Shown here piece after piece: positions 1 through 61,744 of a stretch of 64,000 nt of DNA. The notes beneath the pieces are model-generated. The model searched no databases. It was not told the DNA's origin and saw only the letters and a list, made by a program, of their open reading frames with translations. Position 1 is the stretch's first letter. Each line of letters starts with the position of its first letter. The DNA is taken from the NCBI GenBank assembly GCA_916610825.1, contig OU744452.1, forward strand, positions 4,189,543 through 4,253,542. The letters are read 5' to 3'. Source of the DNA: Haliclystus octoradiatus (taxonomy: Eukaryota > Cnidaria > Staurozoa > Stauromedusae > Haliclystidae). A program made the position numbers and the translations under genes.

Positions 1-3000
1 TTATCCATTAACTTTGTATCTGTTATTAGGAACAATGAATTGGCACTTTTCATTGGTTTCCTTGTCTTCTTTTTCAATTTCCTTGGTGGCTTAATTTCTT
101 TTGGATCCCTTGTGGCTTCAATCTCTTCAGAAATTTCCTCAGTTTCAAATTTTGGAAGTGTTTCTTTTTGTAGGAATTTTGGTCCTTCGTGCCATCTTTC
201 AAGGTCAGCGTCGTTCATCTTGGTGAGTGGATCAGCAGGATTTTGTTTAGAGGGAACATAGTGAAATTCATCTATATTTGCCAATTCTTGAATCTCTGCA
301 ATTCTTGCTTCCACAAATGCCTTCATTTGCTGTGTTGTTGACCTGATCCAATGTAGAACTACTTTTGAGTCTATCCAATAGTGAATTGACAAAGGTTTCA
401 TCCGAAGTGCTGAAATTACATTCTGAGTGAGACGGACCATTATCAATGATGCCACCAGCTCAGTTCTTGGTATTGTCCAGCCTTTGACAGGTGTGACCAA
501 TGCCTTTGCTGCTACAAAGTTTATTTTGAACTTTCCTTCACCCAAATTCCATCTCAGAAACAAGCAAGTGCCAAAGCCCTTTTCTCCACCATCAGCAAAA
601 GCATGGAGTTCTGGTTGACCAATTGCATTTCTTGGCTTCATACATCTGTTGATTGTTGTATTCAACTTGTTTCCAACTTTTTCAATGTTGTCCTTCCAAT
701 ATTCCTTTTCTTCATTGCTGATGACAGTGTCCCAATTGTAGCCAGCTCGCCAAAGACCTTGGAATGGTATACGCAGGTTGACAACTGCCGGTGCTAACAT
801 ACCAAGGGGGTCCCAGATCTTTGCGATTAGGCCAAGTAGATTTCTTTTGGTGAAGTTTTCTTGTAGCTGCCAATCTTTTGGTAAGCTTTTGCATTTCAGT
901 GAAATAACATCAATGTCTTTATTCCAATGATGACCAAGTATCATGGTATTCAAGTCATCTGTTGCTTCTTTTTGGCTGCCATTCACTTTTTGCTCCATCT
1001 CGCTGTTGTTTGAATGCCATTTCTTGATTTTGAAATTTCCCATTTCAAGCATCTGTGTTGTTTGAATAATTGCTTCTTCTACTTCTGAATTGTTTGCTCT
1101 TGAATCTGCTATGTCATCCATGTAAATATTTCTTCTCAGAATCTCTGTACCAATTGGCCACTTTTCTTCAAATGTTGTTGCTAAGAAGTGAAGTGATGCT
1201 TGTGAAAGATCAGGACTTGGTGGATCTCCAAATACCAGACGTTGCCATTCAAACACTCTTGGTTGTATGTTGTTCTTTTCAATCCACAGGAATCGATGGT
1301 ACTTTCGGTCTTCTGGTCCAATTGCAATCATGTTGAACATTTTCTTTATGTCTCCAGTGAAGGCGATCTCATCTTCGCGAAAATTGATAAGTATTTTGAA
1401 CAGTGAGTTGAGTAGGTCAGGTCCTTTTTCTAGAGCAGTGGACAGTGAATGGCCATGATATTTCCTTGCTGAGTTCCATACCATTCTTTTGGGGGTTGAA
1501 GAACTTTCCTTTTCAACGATGAGATGCTCAATATAGAATGCCGCCTCCCCTTCATTGTGTTTGACCTCTTTGACAAATCCAGAGTTGATTACATCTTCAA
1601 TAACAGCTGCATATTGTTCATATTCACCAGTCTCTATCAATTTGTTGGTTTTTCTTCTTAAATTGCAAAATACTTCATGATAGTTATTTTCTAACAGATC
1701 TGGATAACCAGGTTTCCATGGTAACTGAACTTCCACATGACCTTCATCATTCAGCTTTGTGTTCTTGGCTTTATCAATAAAACGTGCTTCATCTATCTCT
1801 TTATTGCTGCAGACGCATTTCTTTGTTGCGTTGACACCAACCAAATCACATGTGATCATCTTCTTCACTTTGGCTGCTTCTTCGTCGTCATTGGTTGCAC
1901 ATATTTGGACAGATGATACATTCTTTGTGTTTGTCATTCTTTTACTTAATTTTTCTGTAACTCCAACAATTGTCCATCCCAGTGGGTATTCAATTCCAAT
2001 TGGGCCATTGACATCATCTTCCTTTGGTTCAATCTTGTGTAGCTCTTTATGTAGTTTCTGTTGATCCCGCCCAATGAGAATGTCGATATTTCCTCCTTTT
2101 TGATCAATTACATTTTCCAAATGTGACAGATGACTGTGTTCTTTGAAGAATTCTTTCTTTAGTGGCGATGCTGCTCCACATGGTTTCTGTATTCCATATG
2201 CATTTATTGTACCTGCTTGCTGTATAGGTTGAAGACTACCAATTGTTAATTGAAAAGTCTTTGTTCTTTCAGTGTGACAATTACCTCCGACGACTTCATA
2301 GTTGATTGTGGTGTCTTCTCCCTCGATCCCAAGTGCGTCAGCAAATGATCTTCTTACCAATGTTGTGTCAGCTCCCCCATCAATGAGACATAGTGCATGT
2401 TTGAGTATTGGTGTACCGTCAGCATTCTTGAATCCTGTTTTTACCCATATTTTGACCACTGGCAACCGAACAGATTCTTCTCCTTTTGCTGTGGCTATGC
2501 CCTTGATGGATGATGTTGTTCTTCGATTGTTGTCTTCATTTCTTTTGGTGTTGGATGTTGAAGGTCGATGTAACAACGTATGGTGATTTCTTCCACAACT
2601 TTCACATGTGTTTGTAGCTTTGCAATTTCTCATGATGTGGTCTGCCTTCAAACATCTAAAACAAAACCCTTTAGACTTGCAATAATCAGACCTAGTTGGT
2701 ACATCTTCAGCTTGAAATACAGGGCACTCTTCTAAAGTGTGACTTGGTCCTTCACAGTCCAATTTGCATTCATCATTTTTGGATACATTTGACGCATTCA
2801 TCTTTGCTGTCTTTTGAGTTGTATCTGATTTTCTTTGGTGGTCGTTGTTTCTTGTATTCCTTTGTTGGAGTTGCCTCTTCTCTGATTTCTTGGTGTGAGA
2901 TGTTTGGATTCTTCTTTCCAGGAACTCCAGGATATATTCGGCTGATAATTTTTCCTCTTGGAGGCCCATCTTTTTTGCCAATCTATTCTCAGTTGATAGT

Positions 3001-4274
3001 TGATCATCGATCTGTTCTTCTAGTTCTCTCCCAGCTTTCCTTTTAAGATCTCTGATGAATTCTTCATCCTTGAGTCGTTCTTGCTTGCCAAAATCTACTA
3101 GGTACATAATATGCGTTCTCATTGTAGTGACAAATGTTTGAATTGTCTCAGTATCTTTGTCTATTAGCGGTTTTAATTTTCGAAAGTTCCATGTCATTTC
3201 ATCCGCTATTTTGTAATCTGTTACTACTAATTTTATGGCCTTCCATGCTTCTTCTATAGATGATCTTCCTTCTATAATTGTGTGATAAGACTCAGGGATT
3301 GTCTTTTCCAGCCACTGAATCTTTACGTCATCATCATTCACGCCTGCTTGTTTCATTGCAGAAGTAAATCTCTTCTGAAATGTGGGAAATGCAATATACT
3401 CCCCATTCCAATTATTCGGGGTAAACCCTGCCAGTCTTACAGAATTTCCTTTATGTTTCTTTTCTCCTTTTGAGTTGACAGCTGTAATGGTTGCTATAGC
3501 GACAGCTTCTGCAACTGACTTTGATATTTCTTTTATCATCTCCATGTTGTAGTTGCTTGACACAGGTATTTCTTTTGTTGATATCATCTCCATGTTGTAG
3601 TTGCTTGATGCAGGTATTTCTTTTGTTGATATCATCTCCATGTTGTAGTTGCTTGATACAGGTATTTCTTTTGTTGATATCATCTCCATGTTGTAGTTGC
3701 TTGATACCGGTGATTCTTTTGCTGTTGATATTTGCCCCTCTGATTGACAGGTATTGTCTTCATTGTCTACTTGGTCGTTATCGTCGGCGTCGTTGTTTGC
3801 ATCGGTAACCATTACGTCATCTTCTTCTTGCGAGGCTATTTCATGATGGCTCGCAGGCGTGGTATTTTTACTCCTTGTTGACAATCTTGTCTCCGCTTGT
3901 TCACGCTGCAATATTAATTCCAACTTTTCGGTTTCAAAGATCATTTCTTGTCTTTGTATTTCTCGTATATTTTTGAAACAATCGTCATGTATTTCGTCGT
4001 GAGTTATTTGAAATTCACTTGTACGCGAATCGACATCATTTTCGACTTCTTCGCTCAACGCGTTGTTGTCTTCTAAATGTGTCAGGTATGTTTTTGTAAT
4101 TGCTTCGTATTCAATGAATGTATTCATTATCTTCTCCTGCATAATTTGCCATCTTTTCATCGATGCATTGTCATTATGCGCTAACTTGTGATGGGCTTGG
4201 ACTTCTAAGCTGAATAACTTGGATTTTCTTTCCCATTTTCTTCTTATGGCTTCGGCATCATCGGCGAAGTTCAT
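1..4274 (-). CDS. BEL/Pao retrotransposon Gag-Pol polyprotein, partial (runs off left edge)
   Basis: A single minus-strand frame opens at the ATG at 4272-4274 and reads about 1424 codons to the window edge. I checked frame agreement at three distant motifs (zinc knuckle, RT active site, RNase H) and met no stop. Order: a charged, coiled-coil-like Gag N-terminus; a 16-residue tandem repeat; a Gag body; a Cys/His knuckle region (near codon 532, CFRCLKADHIMRNC); an aspartic protease of the retroelement type (LIDGGADTTLV, plus strand about 2345-2395); reverse transcriptase with the active-site string YMDD at codon 1051 (plus 1113-1124); then an RNase H-like region with FADGGEKGFG and YWIDSKVVLHW. 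This order and the motifs fit the Pao/BEL class. Integrase and the 3' LTR would lie left of base 1. The lack of stops suggests a young, possibly active copy. Its start lies 960 bp from the divergent FMO start codon. Confidence 0.88.
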   Translation of the reverse strand, partial: MNFADDAEAIRRKWERKSKLFSLEVQAHHKLAHNDNASMKRWQIMQEKIMNTFIEYEAITKTYLTHLEDNNALSEEVENDVDSRTSEFQITHDEIHDDCFKNIREIQRQEMIFETEKLELILQREQAETRLSTRSKNTTPASHHEIASQEEDDVMVTDANNDADDNDQVDNEDNTCQSEGQISTAKESPVSSNYNMEMISTKEIPVSSNYNMEMISTKEIPASSNYNMEMISTKEIPVSSNYNMEMIKEISKSVAEAVAIATITAVNSKGEKKHKGNSVRLAGFTPNNWNGEYIAFPTFQKRFTSAMKQAGVNDDDVKIQWLEKTIPESYHTIIEGRSSIEEAWKAIKLVVTDYKIADEMTWNFRKLKPLIDKDTETIQTFVTTMRTHIMYLVDFGKQERLKDEEFIRDLKRKAGRELEEQIDDQLSTENRLAKKMGLQEEKLSAEYILEFLERRIQTSHTKKSEKRQLQQRNTRNNDHQRKSDTTQKTAKMNASNVSKNDECKLDCEGPSHTLEECPVFQAEDVPTRSDYCKSKGFCFRCLKADHIMRNCKATNTCESCGRNHHTLLHRPSTSNTKRNEDNNRRTTSSIKGIATAKGEESVRLPVVKIWVKTGFKNADGTPILKHALCLIDGGADTTLVRRSFADALGIEGEDTTINYEVVGGNCHTERTKTFQLTIGSLQPIQQAGTINAYGIQKPCGAASPLKKEFFKEHSHLSHLENVIDQKGGNIDILIGRDQQKLHKELHKIEPKEDDVNGPIGIEYPLGWTIVGVTEKLSKRMTNTKNVSSVQICATNDDEEAAKVKKMITCDLVGVNATKKCVCSNKEIDEARFIDKAKNTKLNDEGHVEVQLPWKPGYPDLLENNYHEVFCNLRRKTNKLIETGEYEQYAAVIEDVINSGFVKEVKHNEGEAAFYIEHLIVEKESSSTPKRMVWNSARKYHGHSLSTALEKGPDLLNSLFKILINFREDEIAFTGDIKKMFNMIAIGPEDRKYHRFLWIEKNNIQPRVFEWQRLVFGDPPSPDLSQASLHFLATTFEEKWPIGTEILRRNIYMDDIADSRANNSEVEEAIIQTTQMLEMGNFKIKKWHSNNSEMEQKVNGSQKEATDDLNTMILGHHWNKDIDVISLKCKSLPKDWQLQENFTKRNLLGLIAKIWDPLGMLAPAVVNLRIPFQGLWRAGYNWDTVISNEEKEYWKDNIEKVGNKLNTTINRCMKPRNAIGQPELHAFADGGEKGFGTCLFLRWNLGEGKFKINFVAAKALVTPVKGWTIPRTELVASLIMVRLTQNVISALRMKPLSIHYWIDSKVVLHWIRSTTQQMKAFVEARIAEIQELANIDEFHYVPSKQNPADPLTKMNDADLERWHEGPKFLQKETLPKFETEEISEEIEATRDPKEIKPPRKLKKKTRKPMKSANSLFLITDTKLMD
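3534..3725 (-). repeat. Four 48-bp tandem repeats inside the Pao gag
   Basis: The string atctccatgttgtagttgct recurs at 3538, 3586, 3634 and 3682, an exact 48-bp period. The unit is a multiple of three and encodes a 16-residue repeat (core SSNYNMEMISTKE) in the Gag frame. Units differ by only one or two bases, so the expansion is recent. Confidence 0.9.
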
Positions 4275-5233
4275 ATTGGTTTCTTAAACTTTCTATCGTT
4301 CGTTATCGACGTCTTGTTTGAAACTGTTTTGCCAAGTATAAAAATCCTTTGATTATTCTCCCTGGTCTTCTCTTGAATAAAAGGAAAACGTCGAAGACTG
4401 TACGCATTAAACTACAATCTCTTCGTAACAAAAACTAATAATATATTTGTAAACAATAAAGTGTACCTTTGTACAAATCTCTTTGATCGCTGTTTAATAA
4501 CTATCGTTTAATAACTATCGTTTCAAACGTTGAACCTTCTACTGATTTACATTTGTGGTCTATGCCTATTTATTTACATTTAGAATAATGATTCAGCAAT
4601 TTTATATCTGACAAGCTCATCAAAACATATATAGAATTGATATAATATGCACAAAACTAACTATTAAATTGTCTCAATAAGCACAATTTTATGTTTACGA
4701 AGTTTGTTTACTTTTGATTTACGCTTACATGTGCGTAGTTTATTTTTAGTATAACGTAATTCTCTATATTTAATGTTTCCGATCTATTATCTTAAAATAG
4801 AATGATGTAAGGCATTAATCAGCTTATACATTATTCACCTAACTTATGTTATTTATTATATTATAAAACTATTACTTATGTTAATCAAAACAAAACTCTT
4901 ACTTTCTATTTTCCACTTTCTCAGTCAGTGGACTGGTTACGTAGGATTAACTCATGATTAAATCTAGATGTTTCTATGCAAAAATCCGATCTATGTTGGA
5001 TCGCAGTTATCCTCACTTTCGAGTTCAAAACGAGATTTTGTAAGTGAACATCACTTGCGTGCGTTTTGTCAAATCAGCAGAAATTTGGAAAGCTGCAGGA
5101 GAGATGTTGATCCATTGAATGTGAGTAATCAACACCGCATTTAAGTAACCGAGCAATTCACTTATCATTTTGTATGTTTCTGGAGTTATTGTAGTCAAAG
5201 ATGATTGGTTATTTTATGTAAGTGAAGCTCAAA
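4275..5233. promoter_or_regulatory. Divergent upstream region of the Pao element and FMO; probable 5' LTR inside
   Basis: This stretch separates the minus-strand Pao start codon from the plus-strand FMO start codon and holds no ORF I can support. By position it must contain the leader, primer-binding site and 5' LTR of the Pao element plus the FMO promoter. I could not fix LTR ends because the partner LTR is outside the window. The stretch is strongly AT-rich in the middle (4560-4920). Confidence 0.4.
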
Positions 5234-8200
5234 ATGCGTGTGGCTGTCATAGGCGCTGGCTTCAGTGGTCTGGCTGGTATTAAAACATGCTTGGATGAAA
5301 AGATTGACGTTGTGTGTTTCGAGCGAGAAAATGAAATTGGTGGCGTGTGGCGATACACCGAAGGTAAGGTTTGTAGGCTGTTTGTTTATTGATTTGATTT
5401 CCAGTAATTATATTCAATTATCGATTAAGAAGAAGTTTCAAGCTACTTCCATTACTGGCATGATTTTGGATTTATAACTTAATTTATAATTATGGTAACT
5501 TATAATAAATTAAATAACCATGAGTCAAAAATCAATTAGGCCTACATTGAGTTTGAGTGTAAACCCAGATACACATATGTATATGAATTAGATAGGCTGG
5601 TTATTTAAGCTCTTTTATCTTCGAATTTGATAACTTCTGACTGGATTGACTGATATTTGTTGTTTAGTTGTTTAAAGTTGTAGATTATCGCTGCTTTCTA
5701 ATTTGAGGTTCCAAAAATCAGTGACAGTATTTTTCTTTGGCGGCGCTGTTTAAAGGGACTATGCAGACCGGCAGCTCTTATGGATTATTTTTGGATGCAA
5801 ATTTATGACGTGCCAAAAGGCTCACTACTACTTCTTGTTCGACGCGGTACTTGTTTAGAGATCGCCATGCTTGTTTGTGAGATCGTGCTACTTGATTTGG
5901 AGATCCTGTTGTTTCTCTTGGCGATCGCGTTACTTGTTTGGAGGTCTCGTCACTTCTTTGGCGATAGAGCTACTTGTTTAGAATTTCCGTCACTTGTGAG
6001 AAAATCACGTTCAATCCTCCAGCAAATTTTATATAGTCACAAAAGCGCGTAGTAACTATTTAGGCCTGGTGTCACTACTTTTATCTTAGTTCACATAGGT
6101 GATGTTTGCCAGTGAATGTCGCTGTTTTCATTCTAACATTTTCTGGTTTACATACATAACATGAACATAATATAAAACAGTAAGAATGTAAATAATATAC
6201 CAGGAAGAGTACATGTAAAAGCAGTAACTAATGAATTACTTTATTTAGATATGAGTATGTGTAACTCCGCTAATGTCACAAGGCTACGAATATATTAGTC
6301 AATAGATTTGCAAAATTCTGCACAAAATGTCTTGACTTCATCATCGGTTTCATTTGCTTTTCTTTGGCGGGAAATATTGCTCTTATCTTCAACGTTATCC
6401 TTTAAATCAGCGTGTCTGACTGACAGAAAATATTCATACGGACAGTTTCGACCTAAGCGCAACAGTCGGCATCTCAAAGCTAATGCCGTAATGATCATAT
6501 AATCAAAGAAGTTGTGTGACCGCCTACCCGTTGTTTTGGACACTTCACACCACGTGGTAATTTGAGGTCGCTGTCGTCAATATTTAGTCATGCGTGTTGA
6601 CTGTTTTATCGCATGCGAAATGGAAATGGCAGTTCATTTGGCTAGACTACTTCCGTAAAGATTTAAGTCATCAAATTTAAGCAAACAAGTGACGCCAACA
6701 TGTGGTGCTGCGTAAGTGTCGTGAGTGAACTTGGTGAGTTTAGGAAATTTATGCAAAGCTTCTATGGTGTTAGGAAGCATGCTCTCCTGGACAGAATACT
6801 CCAGGTAGTCAGAGTGGGCTGTGCCCCATCTAACTGTTTTGTCCCAGCCGTGTGCACTATCCATGGAACCACCACTCAATCCTCCCTGGCCGGCGACATA
6901 GACCATGTCCATGCTATAAGCATAAGAGGTATCGACAGCGAAGTAATTCCAAGAGTCAAAAGAAGAGCGATCTCCTCTGACTGAGACAATGGACAATTTA
7001 TCCAAGTATGAGTTACCAGTTAAGGAACATTCCATGCTCATATGTCCATACGAGCCAAAGTCAATCTGAGATGAGACTTCTCTATCTGTAAACCTGATTG
7101 CTCTAGCATGCTTAGCTCTTTCTTCAGTGGGCTTCATTCTGGCCAATAGGTCATAGTCAAGTCCTGAAAGTATAGTCTTGTTGAGTTGAGATGTGTGGTG
7201 AGCCAAATTATCTATACCATTTAGTATGTAAGCAAAAATGTACGCACTAACACTAGCATCATCAATCTTCTTAACATATACCAGATTGCCTTCAGCCTCA
7301 AGCCAAACGCAGGTGAGTGTTGTTCCTGTTCCAAACAAGCCACAACCATTCCCCCAACCTCGAGAGACAGGAGCTCTATGGCAAACTGATCTTGGATCAT
7401 TCTCACCACTAACAGACGGGTCACTACCACCAGGGCAGCCATCGTCACTCGCGGAACGAGTAGACTTGACTGAAGCGTAATAAGTGCGCATGAATGTAGA
7501 AGAGGTCATGGACGTTTCAACAAGTTCAAAACCAACTGATGGTTTACCGTCAACAGAGAAAACTATGCAGCTGTCTCTAAGCAGAGCTATATCTGCCCAG
7601 ACGGTGGTTTTGCCTGTCAAAACATCCTGTTCTGATCCTAGCTGACACTTTCCTTCCACCATGTGAGCTCCTACCACAAGAACTGAAGTCAAAACTGCAG
7701 ACTTGTGGCTTCCAGTTACTAAGAAAACAGCAACATAGACAAGTGAGCTTGCCTAATTGTCAAATCAGGGTGCTTTGGCTTACCCATCTCATGTTTCATT
7801 TGCTTAACAGCTTTCCAGTATCCCTCCCATGTCATTTTACTACTTAGCCCATCTTCTAAGGAATGGTTTCTCCGTTGTCTGTCCAACTGTTGCAAATTGC
7901 AAATTTCAGAAAGATAGGGCAAATGTCCCCTTGACATGGAGACCACTGAAGGTGGGTTTAATGACAAAGAATTCTTTGGCAAAGTGTAATTTACTACATT
8001 TAATATGGCTTGATCAAGTTTAATTTTTTTCTTGATTTTCTTGATTCCTTCCACTAAGAAGTTACGGCTATCAACGAGGAACCTATCCACATCAAATGGG
8101 TTGGCTCCGACTTCAATTTCATCTAGCGTCTCTCTGGCATTAACACCAAGGTAGACATCTCAAGTTTACGTATTCATCAGTCAAATCTGGCTCGATAGCT

Positions 8201-11200
8201 GTGGCTGAAGTCAATTTAACAAATTCGGTTTTCATGAAATCAAATGCCATCGATTTAATGAGCTTCTGCTAATACGCTTGTTGGTTTAACTTGGGTCTTC
8301 TATACTTAAGTTAAAAAAATACGACTTTACTGCTACATATTGCTCCAAAATTCTTGTAACATCTGCCTCTAGAGATAACCATCTTGTCTGTGCTCTGAGC
8401 GTAGTAATTTATGTGGCTCAAGTTCATAAAATATTTTAAATTCTGCAAATGCCTCTTGTCTCTTTGATAAGCGGCTAAAATGGGCAAAAATATCATGACA
8501 TAAATCTTCAAGGCTTTTTGGTAGCTTAAGAGTAGCGGCAGATGAGACTAAATGTATCATATGGCACGAGCATTTAATTGCGTACAAGTGTGTTATATGC
8601 TCTTTCAATTTTTGCGCCACTGAATTATGTTCTCCGGACATTGTATTAGTTATATCCAATGAATAACCAATAATGTTTTCCATTGGAATCCCAATGCTAA
8701 TAAATAGCTCTTTTAAAGATTTGAAAATTCCATCAGCTGTCGTGTCCGATACCTCAATCGATACCTCAATCATGTCTACTAATATATACTGCATTTTAAA
8801 TGTATCTGTGCTAAAGTAGCAAGCCAGAACAGCTAACTGTTTTTTGTGGAAACATCAGTAGTTTCATCAATGATGATACTAGATTTTTTTGTTCTTAGAT
8901 CTTTCACAGTATTCCGCAAATAATCAAAACCAGGAACTTGTTGTATAATGTTTGTTGCTTTTTGTTTCCTTAATTTCACAAGTTCTAAAGCATTATTCTG
9001 TGGGAATAAATCTTCCAGAAATTCTACTAACTTTTCAATGAGTGATATTGGCAGATTATTCTCTGCCAGAAAGCGCATAATTTTATCTCCATAATCTTTT
9101 TTTCTTTTTCAAAATCTTTATTTTTCCCAAAGGCGCTAACAATCGACCGATTTGACGGTTGATAGATACTGCATCTTTATGTTTCATGCTTGCACCGTGC
9201 CTTTGTATGTCTGATTTACTACTGTGTAACTCTTTATAACATAGCTTTCAATATGGTAACCATTTTCCACAAAAGCTGTCAACCCTTTGTCTACATGCAC
9301 CAGTCGTCAAACAGTCAAACACAAATGACAATATGTTGCCAAATCAGTTTTACTATAACAAATAATAATCAATACAAACATTACAAATCTAATTAATACT
9401 AAATATGAAATAAAAGTTGTGAAACAGCGTTGTGAATGTTAATACCTTAGATCTTCACTCACGGCACTAAATGATAACAATACCGACGATTCTTCAATCG
9501 ACTTCTCTCTTCATATTCTCAAACACATCTACTTCTTATCGCATCATTTACAAACAAAGTTCACAAATTCTATTGCAAGATGTGTCTAAATTCTACCAAT
9601 GAAATAAGTTTGAGGCCATGGATGATCTAGTATTGATTTATATTTACGTTAAACCTTTATTTAGCGTGGAAATTTATTTCAATACTTTACGATAAATAGT
9701 GGCATGTTGATGGAATATAATCCAATTTAAAATTGGAGTTAAACGAAATGAAGTTTATGAATATAGGCTATGTAAAATAAAAGTAGTTAAAATATCAAGG
9801 TAAAAAGAAAATTAAACTTAAAATAATATAAAACATAAGTAGGGAGTAGTGACGTTTAACAACTGTTTAGTTTTCTGTGTTGTGGTTTTTGCATTTTTTT
9901 CTATCCTACTAATTCTCAAATTCTACTCACTGGTAAAGTAACAAATCTTCATGTGTCCAATTCTGCTATTTTTATTTTAGTAAGCAAACCCAAAAAATTA
10001 TAAACAAGTGTCCACGTAAGGAAACCAATGGGATGATTGACGTTGATGACGATCTGACGAAATATGTAGGGATAATAGGTCTGATCAAAGCTTTTATTTC
10101 ATTAGTGATGTATCGATCTCCGCAAATCGATATGTCTATTTGTATCATGAAATTTCACAGGTCCCCCTTGTTTAAACTCAACTAAAAAAGACACAATTTG
10201 TATTTTGCAACATCAGCTTATAATTTAACAACAATTTGATTAAATTAAAGTAGCCCATCACGTAGTATGGTCATTACATACACATTACATGTAATAGTGT
10301 AATACAGGTCACATCAGCTCATATCTATTGCCTCTAACATTAACATAATTTGTCACAAAGCTTCACATATATATAAATTGACTGATATGATTGTACTAGC
10401 ATCCTGACGCTATGTTCTTTTCGTTTGTCTTGTACACTGGAAAATACATATATAAATTTGATCAAAATATACATACAATACGCTTGATACTTGATTCAAA
10501 TGATCAAAACAATTTTATGCAACCTGTTTGCAGGTAGGCCCACTACCACTATATATATCTTTATGGTATAATTGACAGGTATAGACTCGCCATGTCATAT
10601 TCAAACAACCCATTTAGATCTTGCAAAGTATTACAGTTTGAAATATAGCAGTTGTTTAAATAATGTCTTTATATTTAATTGAGATTTTAGACATTTCAAA
10701 CCTGTCTCTTTTGAAACTTCTGTTTGTATAATATTTGAGACATCCATTTGACTATATTTTGTTATGATTTTTAGGTTTGAATTTTTAAATTGATAATATT
10801 TCAATAGAAATTTGAACATGCCATATTAATACTAAGAAACATGTGTTACAAAAGTGTTGTAAAATTATTATTGCAGTGTTGAAAATAGAATGAGTGAAGA
10901 TTTTATTAAAACCCTAATATCAAAGCCCTGTCAAAACACCACACCACACTTTTCATTTTGTGATTAGAAAGGAATTAGAACGTCATGACGAACAGTAACC
11001 AGTGTAAACAAGAACACTGCTACAGATAATGGTTCGACGATTCGACCTCTTTTCTAAATATTGAACGATACTTGTGATAATTTGCAATCAATATTGAACA
11101 ATGCACATGATCATACATGCACTTGGAAGGATTTGTTGGAATATTATAGGATATTTCTATTTTATAAACCAAATATTAAACCCTTTCTGTGCAGTGCGGG

Positions 11201-14200
11201 TGATATAGACACTCAGGCTGCAATGAGGCACTCAGAAAGCTTCAGAAAATCACTCGCCACAGTGGTTCTTGATTCTCTTACGCCTTCATCGTGCCTCATG
11301 ACGCAAAACTCTTGTTTATATCACCCGCACTGCACAGAAAGTGTTTAATATTTGTATAACAGGTCAATGTCTATAGTTCATGACTTGCTGTTACTCAGCT
11401 CAGGCAGTCCAGACGTTTGAGAAAGTGGAATGGGTGTCATCTTAGCTAATTTGTAGAGTAGGCTTGCTATGCTAGTGGCCTGTGTATCAGTCCAAAGGTT
11501 TTTAGGACACCATTATGATTAATGTGTAATTTTTTAAACATAATTGATTCATTTCATTAATTTAAATGTTAATTAGTCACATTATCACAAAACAACAATT
11601 GCCATAGAATCAAAACTATATGATATACCTACTGTGTTCAGAATGCTACTGCCCGCCTGTCTACCGATAGGATACCCAGTCTCATGTGGTACTCGGTGTT
11701 GGAAAGGGCTTTATGATAATTTTGAGAAATATTTTTCCGATATTGTTCTTAACGCTTGTATTGAAAGGTGGATTGAACCAGATAATCTATCTCCGTCTAT
11801 TTTTCCTGCTATTAGTAGTGCGCGGAGCGTACTCAAGAATTCATTTATAGATCGGTCGGATAGTCGTTGATTAATTGCTGTTGGAATATGTTTGATGTTG
11901 TTTGTTGGATGGTTTGACTTGGTTTTATTATTTGAAGATTGATCACCTGGTTTTCTGTAAGGGTAGTGAATTGAGTTTGATAGATTGAAGGTTATGTCTA
12001 GAAAATTAGTAGTTTTTATATTAATGTTAATCGTTATCTTTTAGCCAAGTTCTTTGATGGTTCTAATTATTCTCTTCTTAATGCTTTCTGTTTGCGGTCC
12101 TAACTTTCTTTGTAGAACAACTAGTCCGTCGTCTCTGTACAGGCCAATGCAGAATGCTGTTTATCCCACGTATCTTTTCGAGCTTGCTTATACGAATAGG
12201 CTTACCAGTTCACATATCTCGGCACCATCAAAGGTTCCCATTGTGCTGTCAAATAGACTGCCGCTATTCTTTTTATCCATGCTTCATTGCTATCAAATAG
12301 AACAGATGTCCTTGCATGCATTATGATATTATAGAATAGAAAGTAGAAGTAGAATACATATTACACATGTATAGAGCATGTTTTGTTCATTTTATTATGT
12401 TATTTCATTCAAATTTGGAACTCATCAACAGATTTAGCTTACCAATATTGTAATAGTCTAAATGTAATAAAATTGTAACCTATAAGAATGTAAAGTGCAT
12501 CAGATTAAAATCAAAATGTGCTAACTAATATAATGATTATAATGATTGAGTGGTTGCTGTCTACGTTGACAGAGCAGACATGTAGCATAATGAAATAGGT
12601 TTACATTCACTTAAATTTAACCATTTACGGATTTAAAAGTTACATTAACGGTCCTACGTAGCGTATGCACCTTTCTAGTTTTAATCAATCATGTGAAAAT
12701 CAATTAATATGTAATCCATGTACAACTATTTCTATTAAGTAATTAACGATCTATAACTCCTGTGTACCACTAGCGTACTTGTGTTCTTCAAATGAACAAG
12801 TATTCTCGCATATGGAGTCACGATAAACATATTTCAACATTACTATTTTATCTTATGTTTCTGTTAATCATTTATTCACGTAGATGGTAGTATGTTTGAA
12901 ACATCTATCTATCTAGTTTTGGGCCTAACCCCTGTGAAAAAGATCCATGAGTTCATGAACAGTTCATGAACAGTTCATGAACATTTTTTCTGGGTTCATG
13001 AACAGTTCATCAACTGTCACAGAGAGTTGATGGACTTTTCTTGAGCCGGTTCATGAACTGGTTTGTGAATGTGAAATTGCCTGAAAGTTCATGAACAGTT
13101 CTTGAAATGTTCATGAACTGTTCATGTTCTTTTAGACAATTTCACGGTCATGAACTCATGTTCACGTTCTTGAGCTCATGAACTTTTTTGACAGACAAAC
13201 TTATAACACATAATTTACTGTAGTATATCTTGTAAATAATTACGCTACATGTACACTACAGTATGTAAAAGATACAGGGTCAAACTGTATAAAATCATAT
13301 ATATATAGATCCAATTATAATGTGGTCAAACTGTATAAAATCATGTCGCATATTTAAAAGCCTAATTATTAATTTTATGTTTCTGACATACCTTCAATGT
13401 CAACTATTTAAATGATTAGTCTGGGTAATAAATGATTGTAAAGCAGGTATGTCAATGAGTTAGTAATTCATTATACAGTATTGAATAATTTGTCTTGAAG
13501 GGATCTCGTGAAGACTTTGACATGTTTGCAATTTTTCTACTGTCCTGTGCATCTGTCACAAAAGAAAACTATTATTCCGGAGTTTAGCAAAATAATTTTA
13601 TAGCTATTCCATCAAACACTTCAGGGAATGTCTGTGATGAGCCTAAAAAGCCCTGTAGAATGAGTCCTGCTTTATAGAACACAGAACGTTCCTCCTCTTG
13701 AATCTGTATGGCATCATGGGCTTCAGCAGTATCGTCGTCGTCGTCGTCAAATGATATCAATTTATTAGCTTCAAACGTTTCTTCTGTATCAACATGTCAA
13801 TGTACCTATTTCAACATCCTCGCAATAGACTATCTCCTTTGTTTCTATTGCTGGTTTGAAGAATATTGCGTTGAAGCAGGACGTGTTATAATCTGCAGAA
13901 TTGACCTTCTCGACTTCATCAACAATTTCAACAATGTTTTATCACTTTTCACGCATATTGAACATTTTCTCTACAATTACACCATTTGAAAATATTTTGT
14001 AAGTGGTTTCGTATAGCCTAGAGCCCTTTCTACTATTGTCTGTTTTCTACTATTGCCTGTTTTCTAAGTTTTGCTAATTGACTTAAGATAATTAGTAACA
14101 AGTTTAATTTCTGAGACAAAAAACCTTACCTTGTAATAGAAAAACAAGTATTTCTTTTACAAATTATACACATCTTTGGTAGCACATGTGTATTTTTACT

Positions 14201-17200
14201 GGCAATTCCATTCGAAGAAAATATTTTTGATGATCGTGTTACCTTTGCTCGATGACATTACTGGCGGCGTGCAAAGTGGAATCGTCATTCTGTGACACTG
14301 TTGGAGGTGCAGCACTTTAACGCTTATTTGTCTGAGAAAGTTCAGTTTTATCAGTAAAGCGTTGATAACATCTTTCATGGTAATGATTAAGACTTCATGG
14401 TTTTATAGCTATAGATTCAAGGGGACACAAAGAAGAACTTCGATGTGTGTATATTTTTGTTGTTTCTGTCTCCAAACTTCCCCCGCGGGAGCTGTAATTC
14501 CTTTTCAGGCTTCTAGAAGTATTTTGCCTTTTGGCCCACAGCTCATTTGAATCTGTATGCCCTGAAAGTTCACGTTTCTTCTCATTTTGTTTTTCATTTT
14601 GTTTCTTCTCAATTTCCTTCATTAACCAGTGGCTTTATCTCTCTAGCATTAACTGTTCCTGATTATTCTTATGAATCAGATTGTGGATCCAAAGACAATT
14701 GATCAGTATAAATGACATTGCAACTTCAGCTTTCAATCGCATTAACTTGCTTACTAATATTATCACGTCGCATATTTTGAAGTGTCAAGATAAGGGTAGT
14801 AACGTTATGTTTAGCTGCAATGGAGTCATATGTTTTGCATTGTAAATGCTTAGTTATTGGTCTTGTTACTTTTAAACATTAATAAACAATAACAAGACTA
14901 ATAACGAAAGAGAACTGAGATAGGCAATGATATAACGATTCTGCTTTTAATGTTGGTTCAGGCAGCCAGCGGCGATCTCTGATCGTTCTTACTTCTAATA
15001 TTTCTGTGATAGGCTGAAAAAGATCGAAGATACCTCAAAACCACCTATCCACTCAACCCAGCGAGTTTCACAGTTATTTTTTCTAACAATTTTGAATATC
15101 TATTCGGAGATCGACTAGAGAAAGATGTTACAACTCTAACTCGGTTAAAAATATTCTGAACGGGTTGGAGCTTACAAGAAGCAGCAACATACAAGCTCAG
15201 CTACAAGCTCAGTACATGTGAGCTGCAATGGCACCAGCATGAATCCCAGACATGGCACTAGCACCATCATATCCTTGACCCCTACATCAACTCATAGATC
15301 ATCCGTAGCTCTCGACATCGTTGAGAATAGTTTTCGACAGAGCTAAGCCACTCATTCCTGTAGAGCAACTATGGAAACGAGTGAATTCTTCCGGATATTA
15401 TTTTTTTCTCAACAAAACGAATCAAAATGGACATTTGTTAGAAATATCAATAGCTTCGTCAGCCAAAATGGAAAAGCAATTGGGCACTTTTAATTACTGA
15501 AATAATGTTTTTCCTTCAAATTGAGCCACAAATTGAAAAGGATTTGGGTTTTAATAGTTTTAGAACGGTATGTTGCATTGGCTGGCATGGAGAAAAGGTC
15601 AAACGCAGAATTGTTACCCACACATCTTGATCCAAATTTCAGGATTTCAACAAAATTACCTACATTGAAAGAAGGATCATACAAATACTTTGCATCATCA
15701 CGATGTCCTCTGAGAGAAATGTTTTGACGACCACACAAATGTATTGCATCAATTATTGGCCTAAGCCGGGCTGCTCAATGAATCTCCGGAATTCGATAGC
15801 TCGAACAGTGGCTAATGAATGGACTGGAGATTTTAAAACATGGTCTTGAAAGTAGGGTAGTGCCTTATGCCAATTCTTAAATGGTATAGAAAGAAGCCGT
15901 TCGATTTGCATCCATTAAGAAAAGAATCATTGCGGTTCTCAATAAAGGGAATATAAGGAGTACTATGACAAGGTTGAACACACGCAATATCAGGGTCCAC
16001 CACCTGAGGTATGTCAATTGAAGTTGGCATTGCATCATCTGAATGATGACTATGCTTCGATTCTGGGCATACCTTTTTAGCAAAAGAATCAAAAAAGTGT
16101 GGGGGGCTTTCACTTTGGCAAAGCTCTTCTATTCGAAACTACACAAGGGGTAAATTGTTATGTAAATTGAATTTTGATCAAGTAACCAAAAGCAGTATTA
16201 CACATATTTCTTCAGGGGAGACAGAAACGTCATCCGACTGGTGCGAAATTGAGCCAAACTATGGATGAGAAATCAGATTGGAGCGAAAATATGATCATCA
16301 CCTGGCAAAAATAGGAAAACATACTGTACATAAACAAGCCAATCATACGACGCTTCCAAATAATTTCAATGCTACTTTCAAGCTACTACGAAGAAACATG
16401 CTTGTGGCAGGCTAGTCTAGTGAGGGAAATTGACGGTAAACGTTATTCGTCATAGTTAGAAGTCATAATTGTTCAAATAAATTAATAAAGTATGCTTTTT
16501 AGAAGACATTAATTCAAATATGGCCTGTGTATTTCAATGCTTTGCAATTTGTTTATGTACTTTTATAAGGTTTAAATTTATTATTATTGTCAAACAGTTT
16601 GAACATGTTTTTTATATTTTCAGGTGGTGACAAGGGCTCAGTCTGCCAATCAACTGTTATAAACACATGTAAAGAAATGATGTCATTCAGTGACTTTCCA
16701 ATTCCGGATGACTATCCCATGTATATGCACAACACAAGAGTCATCAAATATGCTTTAAGCTATGTAGAGGAATTCGGGCTCTGGAAATATATCCGATTTA
16801 ATACTGATGTTGTCAATGTTGAACAAAGTGATGATTATGCAGCAAGCGGTGCATGGATGATCACGCATCAACTCATTGGTAAAGAAATAACAAGTAAAAA
16901 GACAGAACGATTTGATGCGGTATTAGTTTGCTCTGGACACCATTGGAAAAAATGTTACCCATCATTTCCTGGAATGGAAAAATTTAATGGTTCTCAAATT
17001 CATAGCAAGGAATACCGGAATGTGAATGGATTTCAAGACAAGACTGTTGTTGTTGTTGGCGTTGGAAATTCAGGTGGTGATATTGCTGTTGATTTGAGTC
17101 GTTACGCAAAGAAAGTTTATCTAAGTACAAGGCGTGGGACATGGGTGAGCTCACGCTACGTCAATGGCTATCCAAGGGATAAATATTTCAATAGAAGATT

Positions 17201-18086
17201 TCTAATTAGTTTTGTTCCTCATTGTGTGAAGAATACAATAGCGAAATATGAGATTAATAAAAGGTTTGATCACAAGCAATACGGTTTAATGCCTAAGCAT
17301 TCTGCACTAGCTCAACACCCTACGGTGAATGAAGATCTTCCAACTCGTATCCTATCAGGATTGGTTAACATCAAGCCAAACATTAAACGATTAAATACAG
17401 GAAGTATTGAGTTTGAAGACGGGTCAACGGTTGAAGATGTTGACAATGTAATATACTCAACTGGTTTTCAATTTGGATTTCCTTTTCTTGATCAAAAAGT
17501 ACTTAGCGTGGAAAACAATATACTACCATGCTACAAATATATATTCCCAGTGTCATTGGATCGCCCTACACTGGCCGTTATTGGTTTTATTCAACCGTTA
17601 GGTGCAATTATGCCAATTAGTGAGATGCAATGTAGAGTAGCATTGAAAGTATTTACTAAACAATGCACATTACCATCAATGGTTATTATGAAAAAAGATG
17701 TGATTGAAAAGGAACAGAAACTTGCCAGCACTTATTATGCATCACCACGGCATACTATTCAGGTAAATTATATTGATTATATGGATGAATTAGCCGCCAT
17801 GATCGGTTGCGTGCCAAATGGATGGAAACTTTTATTTAATGACCCTCAAATGTGGTTCCATTGGTATTTTGGCGCTTGTATACCTGCACAGTTTCGACTG
17901 TTTGGTCCTGATAAATGGGAACGAGCAAGAGAAACTGTATTGAGGACAGAAAGTATGACTTTTGTAGCTAGTAAAACACGCTCTGGTAGCACCGAATTAG
18001 CATCATACGTAAATGGAAAGATATTTATTGGATTTGCTTTATTACTAGCTATACTTTATTTCTTTGTCAACTGTACTCTGCTTTGA
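5234..18086 (+). CDS. Flavin-containing monooxygenase (FMO family), two exons
   Basis: Exons 5234-5363 and 16624-18086, joined G|GT across a GTAAGG donor and a TTTTCAG acceptor, give 530 aa, the usual FMO length. FMOs use FAD and NADPH to oxygenate soft nucleophiles such as amines and sulfides, normally at the ER membrane. Seen here: FAD Rossmann motif GAGFSG at residues 7-12; FMO signature FPGMEKFNGSQIHSKEY at about 158-174; NADPH motif GVGNSG at 189-194; the string YSTGFQFGFPFL in the C-terminal half; and a hydrophobic C-terminal segment (last ~20 residues) acting as a membrane anchor. The ATG at 5234 starts one residue before the beta strand that enters the FAD motif, so the start is convincing. 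Substrate cannot be told. All coding sequence after the FAD motif sits in one 1463-nt exon, and the single intron is 11,260 bp and full of mobile and viral remnants. Confidence 0.93.
5835..6010 (+). repeat. Degenerate tandem repeat in FMO intron
   Basis: Variants of 'CTACTTGTTTGGAGATCGC' recur about every 33 bp (for example near 5845, 5885, 5930 and 5970) with many substitutions. An ORF (5780-6052) runs through it, but its protein resembles nothing I know and follows from the repeat. Confidence 0.5.
6295..6594 (-). other. Unrecognised minus-strand open frame downstream of the viral remnant
   Basis: An open frame of roughly 90-100 codons ends at 6295 and lies just beyond the 3' end of the flavivirus-like segment on the same strand. 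The predicted protein carries a basic cluster (TTGRRSHNFF) and four to five cysteines but no motif I recognise. It could be more viral debris, part of another transposon, or chance. Confidence 0.15.
6634..7752 (-). pseudogene. Endogenous flavivirus-like envelope (E) glycoprotein segment, domains I-II only
   Basis: An open frame of 372 codons runs from just after a TAG at 7753-7755 to a TGA at 6634-6636. It starts with a hydrophobic stretch like the membrane hairpin that precedes E in flaviviruses. The hallmark is GWGNGCGLFG (plus 7330-7359), the class II fusion-loop motif. Eight cysteines are present; the third to sixth are spaced 18, 13 and 11 residues apart, as in flavivirus E, while one further E disulfide pair has no counterpart. 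The frame stops about where domain I passes into domain III, so domain III, stem and anchor are missing. No start ATG lies at the 5' end of this frame. It is antisense to FMO inside its intron and clearly less AT-rich than its surroundings. I read it as an ancient genomic copy of a viral gene. The intact frame over this length is unusual for a dead insert. Confidence 0.85.
7756..8311 (-). pseudogene. Endogenous flavivirus-like prM segment, broken by a stop and a frameshift
   Basis: Directly upstream of the E-like segment and on the same strand. The frame ending near 7719 holds a furin-type site, RQRR (plus about 7868-7879), followed by a stretch with TWEGYWKAV that fits the flavivirus M stem, ending where a membrane segment should begin. 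The order furin site, M stem, membrane hairpin, E is the flavivirus polyprotein order. Breaks seen: a TAG at 8269-8271 in the most upstream part; a frame change near 8155-8162; and a frame change near 7755, where the reading passes into the E-like frame. Upstream of the furin site the pr part is poorly recognisable. No capsid and no non-structural genes are visible. These lesions make a functional polyprotein impossible as it stands. Confidence 0.72.
8311..9190 (-). pseudogene. hAT-family transposase remnant (DUF4371-type), frameshifted and truncated
   Basis: Two main minus-strand frames, 9078-8833 and 8794-8369, read as consecutive parts of one transposase. Diagnostic strings: IIDETTDVST (start of the catalytic core), GYSLDITNTMSGEHNS, KCSCHMIHLVSSAA and LEPHKLLRSE. 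A frameshift lies at a run of A/T near 8840 and another near 8385. A poorly conserved N-terminal part seems to reach about 9190. The C-terminal dimerisation region is missing: recognisable sequence stops at about 8311, exactly where the flavivirus-like segment begins, so one insertion probably truncated the other. Confidence 0.8.
9191..11165. other. FMO intron, no gene seen
   Basis: AT-rich intronic DNA. The short ORFs (for example 9190-9396 and 10631-10819) have no recognisable motif and match the AT bias. I see no RNA gene here. Confidence 0.5.
11170..11354. mobile_element. Short non-autonomous inverted-repeat element (MITE-like), ~185 bp
   Basis: The left arm from 11170 (core TTCTGTGCAGTGCGGGTGATATA) and the right arm ending at 11354 are near-perfect reverse complements over about 45 bp: TATCACCCGCACTGCACAGA returns on the right at about 11319-11338. 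Both arms contain AAATATTAAAC at the outer edge. A looser match (TGAGGCA and TGCCTCA) continues inward. The centre is unrelated single-copy sequence. No target-site duplication could be fixed. Confidence 0.7.
11740..12330 (-). pseudogene. Penelope-like reverse transcriptase remnant
   Basis: Reading the minus strand from about 12325, broken frames give MGTFDGAEICELV, then GLYRDDGLVVL (RT catalytic YxDD-type box), then NFLDITFNLSNSIHYPYRKP and RLSDRSINEFL. This succession is, to my knowledge, that of Penelope-like element RTs. Several stops and frame changes (for example near 12190 and 12040) make it a decayed copy. The finger domain and the endonuclease are not seen. It lies inside the FMO intron, antisense. 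Confidence 0.68.
12945..13185. repeat. Cluster of palindromic GTTCATGAAC units
   Basis: The perfect 10-bp palindrome GTTCATGAAC occurs at 12951, 12962 and 12973 with an 11-bp period, then again with changes about ten times up to 13185. The outer parts (ATCCATGAGTTCATG at the left, GAGCTCATGAACTTTTTT at the right) oppose each other, so the block can also fold as one large imperfect hairpin. It lies in the FMO intron. Confidence 0.75.
13560..16160 (-). pseudogene. hAT transposase remnant, ZMYM1-like, heavily decayed
   Basis: Scattered minus-strand fragments read in the order of a ZMYM1-type hAT transposase: an N-terminal part at about 16113-15780 (KALPYFQDHVLKSPVHSLAT); CGRQNISLRGHRDDAKYLYD at 15735-15670 with VGNFVEILKF after it; FSILADEAIDISNK near 15450; RGQGYDGASAMSG near 15280-15240; and a C-terminal stretch (EERSVLYKAGLILQGFLGSSQTF) near 13680-13600. 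Many stops and frame changes interrupt it. It is distinct from the hAT copy at 8.3-9.2 kb. Confidence 0.75.
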
Positions 18087-58400: not shown

Positions 58401-61400
58401 AAATTTGAACACATCATGTTATAAGAGGGGGACATTTGATGTAATTGATCAATAGAATTCTTTCTGTAAAGCGATATAAAGTATCAATACTCGAGACCCT
58501 TTGTTTGAGCTACAGCTACTACAATCCATATAAACGTTTCATAAATATAATCAAGCTACTATCATTTATAGTGTATATATTCAAGATATAGAATATCTGA
58601 TACGTTGAGATATGTCTTCTCTAATAGATATATATATTTAATGTGAGCTCAACCATAATTTTGTCTTATTTCTCTTAACAAACATAACAACGTAACGTAT
58701 CAATAAATGTACTGGATATGTTTTTAATTAGCAATGTTAATAATACATACGCAATTGTACGATTAACACTTTCTTTCTTCACAAGATAAAGCTCCTTCTA
58801 GCTATAATAAACCATAAAGGTATCAATTGAAATCCGCCTTGGTACAAATTTCCTATTCAGTGTAAATGGAAAAACTCGAGGAGCTCCAATTAAACTTTAT
58901 TAAAAAAAACACGCCGTTTATTATCTAATCAGTACTAATCTCTAATTCAATTGAGTAACTCTTATCAGGAAAAGACTCAGATCTTGAAAGTCAGCTTTAC
59001 CGATCGCTTTAAAAAGGAGAAGATAAGTAAATAAATAAATATCACAAAGTATTTTAAAAAATGCTTGAAACTATACATTTACATTTCAAAGCTAATTTCA
59101 GATCCATTTCAAGGCAGTATTATGTAAACATATTAATGCTCATTATGTAGAAAAAACGTGTCAGACATAATAATTTCACGTGTTCATATAGACGTACTAT
59201 TTAAGATTGGATAATGACTCAGATAGCATACAACATCCCAATTTTCGTTTCTCGCACATCGAACAATATTCACATAAATAGATTTTATGTTCTCTAAAAA
59301 TAATGAGATTTCTGAATTAGAAAACTATCCGATATAATTGAAAGGAATATATATATACATTGTATATGCTTTGTCGCATGTTTATTTTAGGAATTATCAG
59401 CAGGCTCTTATCAATTGGAAATTATCTAAACTAATTCTAAATGAAATTGATCTGAATCGGAAATTCGATAAGCAAATAATCATTCAGGTATAACTGAATA
59501 TTTCTGTTTGATTTCGGTTCAAAGATTCCTAATATAAGAATATGCTGCCTAATTCAAGGTCTATTTTTCTTGCTTGTGCTATTAAGCGTTTGTTCTGTAC
59601 AATATGAAGTATAGCTTAAACTAATTAAGCAAGGGTCCTTTCGAATCAAGTAAAATGGGTTAACTATCAAGTTTTCCTATATAAACTCACAACATAAATG
59701 TGCTTAAAACTAAATAATATTTTTTGAAATTAATGCAACGTTTTCTTATTTTCAGTCAAAAATTTCTTAAGCTTTGTTACTTTGACACACAAAAGTCTTT
59801 CAAAATAAGGAAACTATATCTAGCCTATCAACAAACTCTACTATTACCTATTACAGGTAAAACTTATCTAACACTTTATGTATCTAAATAACATTTGTTT
59901 TGTCTTCATTCATTTTCATCTTTAAAGCTCAGTTGTGAAGCCATCCTTTTGTTTTCATCTCCTGAATTAAACAAATAACAATTTGAATATTCATAGGAAT
60001 AAAATTATTGATGTTGGAATTCATTCTAAGCATTGGTATTCTCTTTAGCTGTAGATAGGCCCAGATAATTGTTTTGAAGCAAGGAAGCAAATACTCTTTT
60101 TTGTTGCGAGCGTTATTAACGTTCTGGGTTTCAAGCAATATTTCAAAATCAGTCTCGAAATCATAGTTTGTAGCTCTTTGAGAATTAAGCATCGCGTATG
60201 CCGACTTCGTCGGTCCGACTTCAAACTTAAACACCATCATTTTGTTGTATTAGATCTACATCATTAAGCGATAATTAATAGCATGCGGCTCTTTTTTCAT
60301 GAATGTAACCACAAGTTCTATTAACTGACCGTCAGTGAAACATAAATTGAAATGGAGTGAATAAATCAAAATATTTAAAGCGCCATGAATAGCATTTGAT
60401 TAGTATTTAAACTTTACTTTCTGATATGAACTATACTGTAATTACTGAAACCAACTGAAACTGCTATATATTTTTGCAGAATAATGTCTTTTCTGAATTT
60501 CACCTTATGTTCGAACTTTAAAAACCTTGAAGATATCACGCAAAGTTCATTTCTAATGGCTAATTGCCCTATTTCTAGTTGTTAAGATTTGTAATCTGTA
60601 TTGTAGCCACGGGGAACAAATCCCCAGAATACACATGTTTGTAAAGAAAGGCTTTCATAGTACAGTTGATACCAGCTTTTTGGAATAAGCGACACCATTC
60701 AAACAATTGACGTCGTCTGTATATGAAGAGGGTGGTAATTTCCTTGCTGTGGTCAGTGAAAATATTGATGCAATTTATGGTTCAAAATCGATAATTCACT
60801 TTGGAGGTTCATTAAATGCGATCTTTCGTTTCCAAAATATCTTTTCATAACTTTGCAGATAGTAAATTGTGATAAACGATTGATCAGAAGCTGGTAAAAC
60901 GTTTGATTCTAACTAATTTCATAACGAAGCGTGATCCGGCACCTGCAATATTAAGGATAAAAAAAATGATAGTCAGGCATATTATTTTGAAATTGTCAGT
61001 TGCAATTGTACCAAGCAAATCGAAAATAATCTCAAGATATTCAACGGCTATTGTAGACGACCTTAAGCTCTAATGCTTGTTTATTTGGGGTACAATGATA
61101 TGTTATATACTTTAACTAATTTTACAATTAATAACATTTATAGATTTAGATCAGTTAGATACATAACTGATTTTATAATAATTAAAAATGAAAATCAGTA
61201 TCTGCTGGATCCTCTACAGCTCGTACAGACATAGTCAAAATAAAAACCGACAGTAAAGAAAAAAATAAATGAAATATGATAATATTTTGTTAGTATATTA
61301 ATTATAGGATGAAAATGATAGTGATAGTCTCATTGACTCGACATTAGTTATTTGAATTGTTAGTGATTATGTTTAGTTAGATTGTCGCATGCATAACAGT

Positions 61401-61744
61401 CTTCCACGGTGCATTCAGAGTATAGTATCAAGGAGGCTACTCTGTAGGTTTAATGTAAATTGCAAACAAGAAGCAGGAATTTCTTTTAACATATTCCAAT
61501 GATTCCTGATTATAGGAAATTGTTGTAAATGAGTTAGTTTTACGACTTTTGTGGGCCGTAAATGAAATTAATTTGCTGTGAATGAGTACTGGGAATTTCT
61601 GTGAATTAACTTAATGGAGGAGGGATGCAGTGTTGGAGATGTGTAGGTATGCAGTATGCTAATTCTAAAATAGTTGCCCTTCACATGAAACAATTTGGAT
61701 GCGATTGCATAAATAATTAATAATCCAGATCTAGACAAACTCTT
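55422..61744. other. Gene-poor stretch with two unassigned ORFs
   Basis: 6.3 kb without a gene I can support. Two ORFs deserve mention. 55961-56185 (+, starting MSYFPHVMFC) is locally less AT-rich and reads protein-like (SYLYKLDEKIDDVNED), with a possible donor GTGGGT at 56097. 59929-60240 (-, 103 codons) begins MMVFKFEVGPTKSAYAML. Neither has a motif I know. The rest is AT-rich with short tandem runs. Confidence 0.3.
56802..56875 (+). repeat. Dispersed ~75-bp repeat, copy 2
   Basis: Direct-orientation partner of 54841-54915; both copies contain tttgaaaatggcatat. A partial third match (caaaatggcatatacc) occurs near 56343. Confidence 0.75.

What the first reader, a model, noticed from the sequence alone, without database searches (positions are those of the whole stretch)
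6634..8311. Endogenous flavivirus-like prM-E segment in an FMO intron
Furin site, M-stem-like stretch, membrane hairpin and E domains I-II occur in flavivirus order on one strand. The fusion-loop string GWGNGCGLFG and the cysteine spacing (18, 13, 11) are seen directly. Flavivirus structural genes integrated into a marine-invertebrate-like genome are rarely described, and this one points to a deep lineage infecting such hosts.
Basis: partly seen in the sequence, partly recalled or inferred. Interest (0 to 1): 0.88.

Follow-up and report, generated by a model that had tools for sequence, protein, structure and literature searches.

The report
Fossil flavivirus envelope gene fragment
A piece of the coat-protein gene of an unknown, distant relative of dengue-type viruses sits as a fossil in an intron of an unnamed animal's genome, and further flavivirus pieces lie on three other chromosome-scale contigs of that genome.

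Summary
The core of the finding is real. Window 6637-7752 (minus) is a 372-codon open frame; from about 7744 to 6643 it encodes the M membrane hairpin and E domains I-II of a flavivirus (Pfam 2.8e-25; PDB E proteins 1.5e-25). It lies antisense in intron 1 (5364-16622) of an FMO gene.

The claimed furin site and M stem are not viral: that frame belongs to a decayed hAT transposon, and a C6 copy runs through the junction without virus. So there is no prM in this window.

The viral piece is a patch: hAT fragment, 12-nt filler, virus, internal fragment of a high-copy repeat that supplies the stop codon.

The host genome holds a second E locus on C4 (98.1% identical) with capsid-like, prM, M, E and a probable NS1 start, split by a CACTA transposon; NS5 on C1; NS3-NS5 pieces on C2. 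C1 NS5 is 31-34% identical to all seven polyproteins compared, whose two groups are 44-46% identical to each other.

Most likely a young, inert endogenous flavivirus element: a known kind, new member.

The parts
6643..7744 (-). viral piece: end of M (membrane hairpin) and E domains I-II
   Evidence: Pfam; PDB; polyproteins; C4 copy
6634..7752 (-). open frame, 372 codons plus stop; first Met at residue 31; last codons and stop lie in the fused repeat
7745..7756 (-). 12-nt stretch at the junction matching neither the hAT copy nor the C4 viral copy (filler)
6350..6642 (-). internal fragment of a high-copy repeat (unit about 1.35 kb) fused to the 3' end of the viral piece
5234..5363 (+). FMO exon 1 (donor GTAAGG at 5364)
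16623..18086 (+). FMO exon 2 onward (acceptor AG up to 16622)
   Evidence: Pfam FMO-like 4e-155
5364..16622 (+). FMO intron 1, in which the element lies antisense

Best explanation
This is a non-retroviral endogenous viral element. Shown: about 1.1 kb of a flavivirus structural region (M membrane hairpin plus E domains I-II) lies antisense in an FMO intron, joined on one side to a broken hAT transposon through a 12-nt filler and on the other to an internal fragment of a high-copy repeat. Shown: a longer, nearly identical piece lies on C4, and nonstructural pieces of a flavivirus on C1 and C2. Inferred: viral RNA was copied into DNA by a host retroelement's reverse transcriptase and fragments were captured by template switching or during break repair, which would explain the truncated neighbours, the filler and the very short overlap. 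Inferred: the element is young, decays neutrally and is inert at protein level, since it has no Met before its signal region and its frame ends at a stop supplied by the repeat. Transcription of the FMO intron would give RNA antisense to the viral genome, a possible but untested source of small RNAs.
For: Flavivirus E by Pfam, PDB and nine polyproteins; eight cysteines fit four E disulfides, fusion loop exact; GC 0.448 against 0.34-0.36 in the flanks and CpG o/e 0.43 against 0.60-0.70 in hAT, intron and FMO exon; host-virus junctions and a hAT copy without virus; second E locus at 98.1% on C4; NS5 and NS3 pieces elsewhere in the genome; 10 nonsynonymous to 9 synonymous changes between the two E copies, not significantly below neutral (p = 0.07).
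Against: No target-site duplication was recognised, so the integration mechanism is inferred. Both E frames are open and the excess of synonymous changes is borderline, so weak selection is not excluded. Structure prediction failed (pLDDT 31). No reads were available to check the junctions.
Confidence: 0.88

Rival explanations
1. The segment is prM plus E, as first read, extending to 8311: the furin site and M stem lie in 7757-8159.
For: RQRR, a TW..YW stretch and HP(D) fall by eye in an M-like order before the hairpin.
Against: No flavivirus match of that frame; DNA match to hAT copies at 88-94%; C6 copy continues through the junction; the true M of this virus, seen at C4, has a different stem and an R-F-A-R site.
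Confidence: 0.02
2. Domesticated element: the host keeps the E fragment (decoy or fusogen-like protein) or its antisense RNA as antiviral memory.
For: Both E frames are open; synonymous changes slightly in excess, p = 0.07; antisense orientation in a transcribed intron.
Against: No Met before the signal region, stop supplied by a repeat; C4 copy has an in-frame stop in pr and a transposon between M and E; open frames are expected by chance with probability 0.11-0.56 at this divergence under assumed indel rates.
Confidence: 0.07
3. Env capture: the E gene is the envelope of an LTR retrotransposon.
For: BEL/Pao pol frame at 3-4283 minus and Ty3/gypsy-like fragments beside the C4 locus (read by eye).
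Against: FMO exon 1 lies between E and the BEL/Pao frame, and E is upstream, not downstream, of pol; at C4 the E gene sits in a capsid-like, prM, M, E, NS1 order; NS3 and NS5 pieces occur in the genome.
Confidence: 0.02
4. Assembly artefact or contamination by viral sequence.
For: No reads were available; successive C2 units are 100% identical over the 2,009 bp compared, which can be an assembly artefact.
Against: Chromosome-scale contigs; two E loci with 19 differences joined to host repeats; C2 nonstructural frames broken into several pieces.
Confidence: 0.03

Closest known systems
Orthoflavivirus E protein (Pfam PF00869; dengue, Spondweni, yellow fever, T'Ho, Culex and Aedes flavivirus polyproteins)
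   Same: Collinear M hairpin, E domains I-II, fusion loop, four disulfide pairs
   Different: 17-26% identity to the seven compared; one disulfide pair lost on both sides; extra residues in several loops; a CPGGS stretch like the insect-specific ones beside a fusion loop like the others
Flavivirus-derived endogenous element of the jellyfish Craspedacusta sowerbii (Bamford et al. 2022, seen only as cited in PMC9854234)
   Same: Flavivirus fossil in an invertebrate genome, in the cited tree near lineages basal to the genus (passages and section 14 of PMC9854234)
   Different: Could not be compared: the paper is not held, its coverage was not seen, and the host here is unnamed, so identity is not excluded
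hAT transposase (DUF4371 type)
   Different: Decayed into several frame pieces and cut off at the viral junction

Membership tests
Flavivirus E glycoprotein (class II fusogen) | Profile match to domains I-II | tested here: met
   PF00869 2.8e-25, 89.6 bits against cut-off 27
Flavivirus E glycoprotein (class II fusogen) | Fusion loop and disulfide framework | tested here: met
   RGWGNGCGLFG as in P0001-P0005; 4 pairs present, 1 pair lost on both sides
Flavivirus E glycoprotein (class II fusogen) | Domain III, stem and anchor | tested here: not met
   Window copy stops before domain III. The C4 copy aligns through it, profile support weak (0.099)
Flavivirus E glycoprotein (class II fusogen) | Class II fold | tested here: inconclusive
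   Single-sequence model, pLDDT 31
Flavivirus prM in the window | Propeptide with furin site and M stem upstream of the hairpin | tested here: not met
   hAT instead
Endogenous viral element | Joined to host DNA in a host chromosome | tested here: met
   Junctions with hAT and repeat on a 21.3 Mb contig; not checked on reads
Endogenous viral element | More than one locus or inherited decay | tested here: met
   C4 copy, C1 and C2 pieces; stop and transposon in C4, broken frames in C2
Endogenous viral element | Present at the same site in other individuals or species | not testable with these tools
   Only one genome held; no relatives
LTR retrotransposon env | Lies downstream of gag-pol inside one element | tested here: not met
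   FMO exon 1 lies between E and the BEL/Pao frame, and E is upstream of it

The most novel reading that the evidence does not exclude
The host has recently and repeatedly endogenised a flavivirus lineage that branches outside both the vector-borne and the insect-specific groups, and some copies are kept in use: open E frames and an antisense intron copy serving as antiviral memory through small RNA or a decoy E fragment, with the C2 tandem units as an amplified source.
Probability: 0.08. Interest if true: 0.8.

Novelty: new member of a known kind. Interest (0 to 1): 0.5.

Why it matters
The one flavivirus fossil of a non-arthropod invertebrate that I saw reported is a jellyfish case (PMC9854234, passages). 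This genome carries structural and nonstructural pieces at several loci, and its NS5 is about equally distant from all seven polyproteins compared, so it bears on how old the group is and which animals it infects. The open E frames and the low divergence between the two copies suggest that the virus, or close kin, infected this host's ancestors recently enough that an exogenous relative may still circulate.

Tried and rejected
prM in the window: rejected. The perfect 13-mer at 6347-6359 and 7793-7805 as a target-site duplication: rejected, because hAT homology runs through 7793 down to 7757. hAT terminal repeats with an 8-bp duplication around the insert: 7 candidates, no better than four control regions (18, 8, 14, 17). 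hAT C-terminal part below 6634: no Pfam hit and only one real DNA match to the hAT loci, 40 bp at about 6009-6048, unexplained. Homologs of the 372-aa frame in the 5.8-billion set: none of 6004 candidates at E <= 10, since polyproteins fall outside its length filter. The hAT frame in that set: none of 9 candidates. IMG/VR and GTDB contigs for E, fusion loop, hAT or NS5 relatives: nothing confirmed except the hAT contig L001; phage records for E, plasmid records for a hAT piece and for the C4 frame: none. Structure prediction from one sequence: pLDDT 31, unusable. Pfam for propeptide, M, capsid and NS1 on the C4 stretches given: no hit. PDB: capsid/pr frame none; pr/M frame 10 rows up to E 1, one of them a prM at 0.45; domain III-NS1 part 9 rows, eight of them flavivirus E or its domain III at 0.53-0.98. 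In one search, besides E, the best of 520 pieces reached 6.6e-4 (window 11714-12040 minus, 37 residues of P0001) and the rest 0.004 or worse; taken as chance, not followed.
Full report
WHAT IS THERE. The minus strand of 6634-7752 holds a stop-free frame of 372 codons. In 300 first-order Markov versions of the surrounding intron the longest open run was 217 codons (mean 114). Pfam gives one family, Flavi_glycoprot, E 2.8e-25, 89.6 bits against a cut-off of 27. In the PDB the best hits are flavivirus E proteins, E 1.5e-25 for 3j27_A (120 sequences up to E 10, best 60 shown). With the length filter widened to admit polyproteins, 9 of 4477 candidates scored E <= 10; all nine carry flavivirus Pfam domains, eight bear flavivirus names, P0003 is unnamed. 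P0003 aligns over residues 1-369 with polyprotein 235-562 at 25.5% identity.

ANATOMY. Residues 3-30 are the M membrane hairpin, residue 36 is the first E cysteine, and the frame runs to the domain I-III linker, a few residues before the first domain III cysteine of the relatives. Eight cysteines fit four E disulfides (pairing from general knowledge of E). The two cysteines of one further pair are both replaced (residues 92 and 153); P0003 lacks both too. The last codons and the stop lie in the fused repeat. The first Met is residue 31, after the hairpin.

NOT prM. A pattern made from the neighbouring transposase piece found one contig in GTDB, L001, labelled a sponge-symbiont MAG, with collinear matches to three of the window pieces (E 5e-10, 3e-16, 1e-8) and DUF4371 at 6e-4, 20.2 bits, below its curated cut-off of 32.1. 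The window's own joined pieces gave DUF4371 only at 0.15. In the host genome the same DNA recurs on C1 and C6 at 88-94%, and the frame itself matches five places besides its own, best E 6e-34. The C1 copy runs to window 7788, the C6 copy to 7757 and then continues with other, by eye transposase-like, sequence and no virus: an empty site for that side. hAT motifs were also recognised from memory.

JUNCTIONS. hAT ends at 7757. Bases 7745-7756 match neither the hAT copy nor the C4 viral copy. The viral match begins at 7744. On the other side virus and repeat overlap by a few bases at 6640-6645. The repeat piece (6350-6642) is internal to a unit of about 1.35 kb; 38 of the 40 scored DNA matches of the region (231 candidates, so a lower bound) are to it. 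No target-site duplication was recognised. The pieces look like fragments joined during repair or by template switching; this is inference.

HOST GENE. FMO exon 1 (5234-5363) and exon 2 (from 16623) have GT and AG borders; the downstream exon matches FMO-like at 4e-155. The element is antisense in intron 1.

THE GENOME. G000 has 261.9 Mb in 33 contigs; the window lies at C8:4189543-4253542. PF00869 matches two places, C8 and C4; 0 of 14 control genomes match. On C4 the frame is 674 codons. It aligns through domain III (both cysteines), stem and anchor into a probable NS1 start. Support for domain III by profile is weak (Pfam 0.099; PDB rows 0.53-0.98), and NS1 has no Pfam hit. About 5.8 kb upstream are a frame with capsid-like, basic sequence (20 K/R, 1 D/E in 84 residues) plus a pr start, one in-frame stop, and a frame with R-F-A-R and the M hairpin. 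The latter matches Spondweni prM at 27% over 96 residues, E 2.8e-5 in a search of nine N-termini, 0.007 against the whole polyproteins, and a solved prM at 0.45. The capsid-like part has no significant match. Between M and E lies an insert with CACTA-type ends, a 3-bp duplication and a tnp2 transposase match of 3.5e-8. The C8 copy lacks this insert. Of 869 frame pieces over 37.9 kb of C4 only the E frame matches the polyproteins strongly; the next are 0.004-0.007.

AGE AND SELECTION. C8 and C4 differ at 19 of 1024 bases without indels: 10 nonsynonymous, 9 synonymous; the neutral expectation is 0.72 nonsynonymous, p = 0.07. For indel/substitution ratios of 0 to 0.1 both frames staying open has probability 0.56 to 0.11. 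The data fit young neutral copies and do not exclude weak selection. Whether C8 and C4 are one integration later copied, or two integrations of near-identical virus, is open: in the stretches compared they share only the viral part.

OTHER VIRAL PIECES. PF00972 (NS5) matches C1 once (open frame 781 aa, GDD present) and C2 six times, two pieces at each of three places spaced 7,892 bp; 0 of 14 controls match. PF07652 (NS3 helicase) matches six times, again two pieces at each of three C2 places with that spacing; 2 of 14 control genomes, both bacteria, also ring, so that family alone would be weak. In the 9.9 kb of C2 fetched, nine frame pieces match polyprotein positions from about 1422 to 3368 (one of the nine belongs to the next unit, and one matches only at 6.6e-4). 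A 2,009-bp overlap of two successive units is 100% identical. C1 and C2 are 96.6% identical over 3.5 kb with 7 gap openings.

LINEAGE. C1 NS5 is 31.1-33.8% identical to the seven polyproteins compared; P0006 and P0007, of yellow fever type like P0004, were dropped. P0001-P0005 on one side and the two insect-specific ones (P0008, P0009) on the other are 43.9-46.5% identical to each other. For E the window copy is 17.0-26.2% identical to the same seven. No tree was built; in this small sample the lineage lies outside both groups. That E and NS5 come from one virus is plausible, not shown.

KNOWN OR NEW. A flavivirus EVE in the jellyfish Craspedacusta sowerbii is reported by Bamford et al. 2022, seen here only as cited in PMC9854234 (passages; section 14; the original is not held). 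That paper also reports flavivirus sequences of a cnidarian and an acorn worm basal to the classified genus, and of ostracods among crustacean flaviviruses. [quoted passage not shown] the C4 locus adds a probable case. Passages of PMC12942856, PMC12282059 and PMC11097642 named no such element of this kind. The host is an animal, judging by the BEL/Pao pol frame (restriction of BEL/Pao to animals recalled).

VERDICT. A real, probably young endogenous flavivirus fragment in a multi-locus set: a new member of a known kind. The prM part of the finding is wrong for this window.

Noticed in passing
3-4283 minus: Stop-free BEL/Pao retrotransposon pol frame (Peptidase_A17 7e-40, RVT_1 5e-8), running off the window start, with a 48-nt tandem repeat at 3534-3721.
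   Followed up: partly
L048 (C2:26203000-26212900): Flavivirus NS3-NS5 pieces in broken frames, in units repeating every 7,892 bp; three places in the family searches, 2,009 bp of overlap 100% identical. Recent tandem duplication or assembly artefact.
   Followed up: partly
L049 (C1:15724883-15727225 minus): NS5 frame of 781 codons without stop, GDD present, 96.6% DNA identity to the C2 pieces. About 25 kb from the C1 hAT copy.
   Followed up: partly
L012 and L036 (C4:35823657-35829430): CACTA-type transposon (tnp2 3.5e-8, 3-bp duplication) inserted exactly between M and E of the C4 viral copy.
   Followed up: yes
L001 (LWTN01000152.1): Contig of a Cycloclasticus sponge-symbiont MAG carries a hAT transposase, so probably eukaryotic contamination.
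   Followed up: partly
9268-9400: Another repeat: 36 of 43 rows match only this stretch, at 69-87% identity.
   Followed up: no
20276-43594: Several long plus-strand frames of low-complexity, secreted-looking proteins; of the four given to Pfam none had a family above its cut-off.
   Followed up: no
6009-6048: A 40-bp, 95% identical match to sequence near the C6 hAT copy, unexplained.
   Followed up: no
61061-61964: Matches at 70-88% to the flank of the C1 NS5 piece in L049, probably a shared repeat.
   Followed up: no
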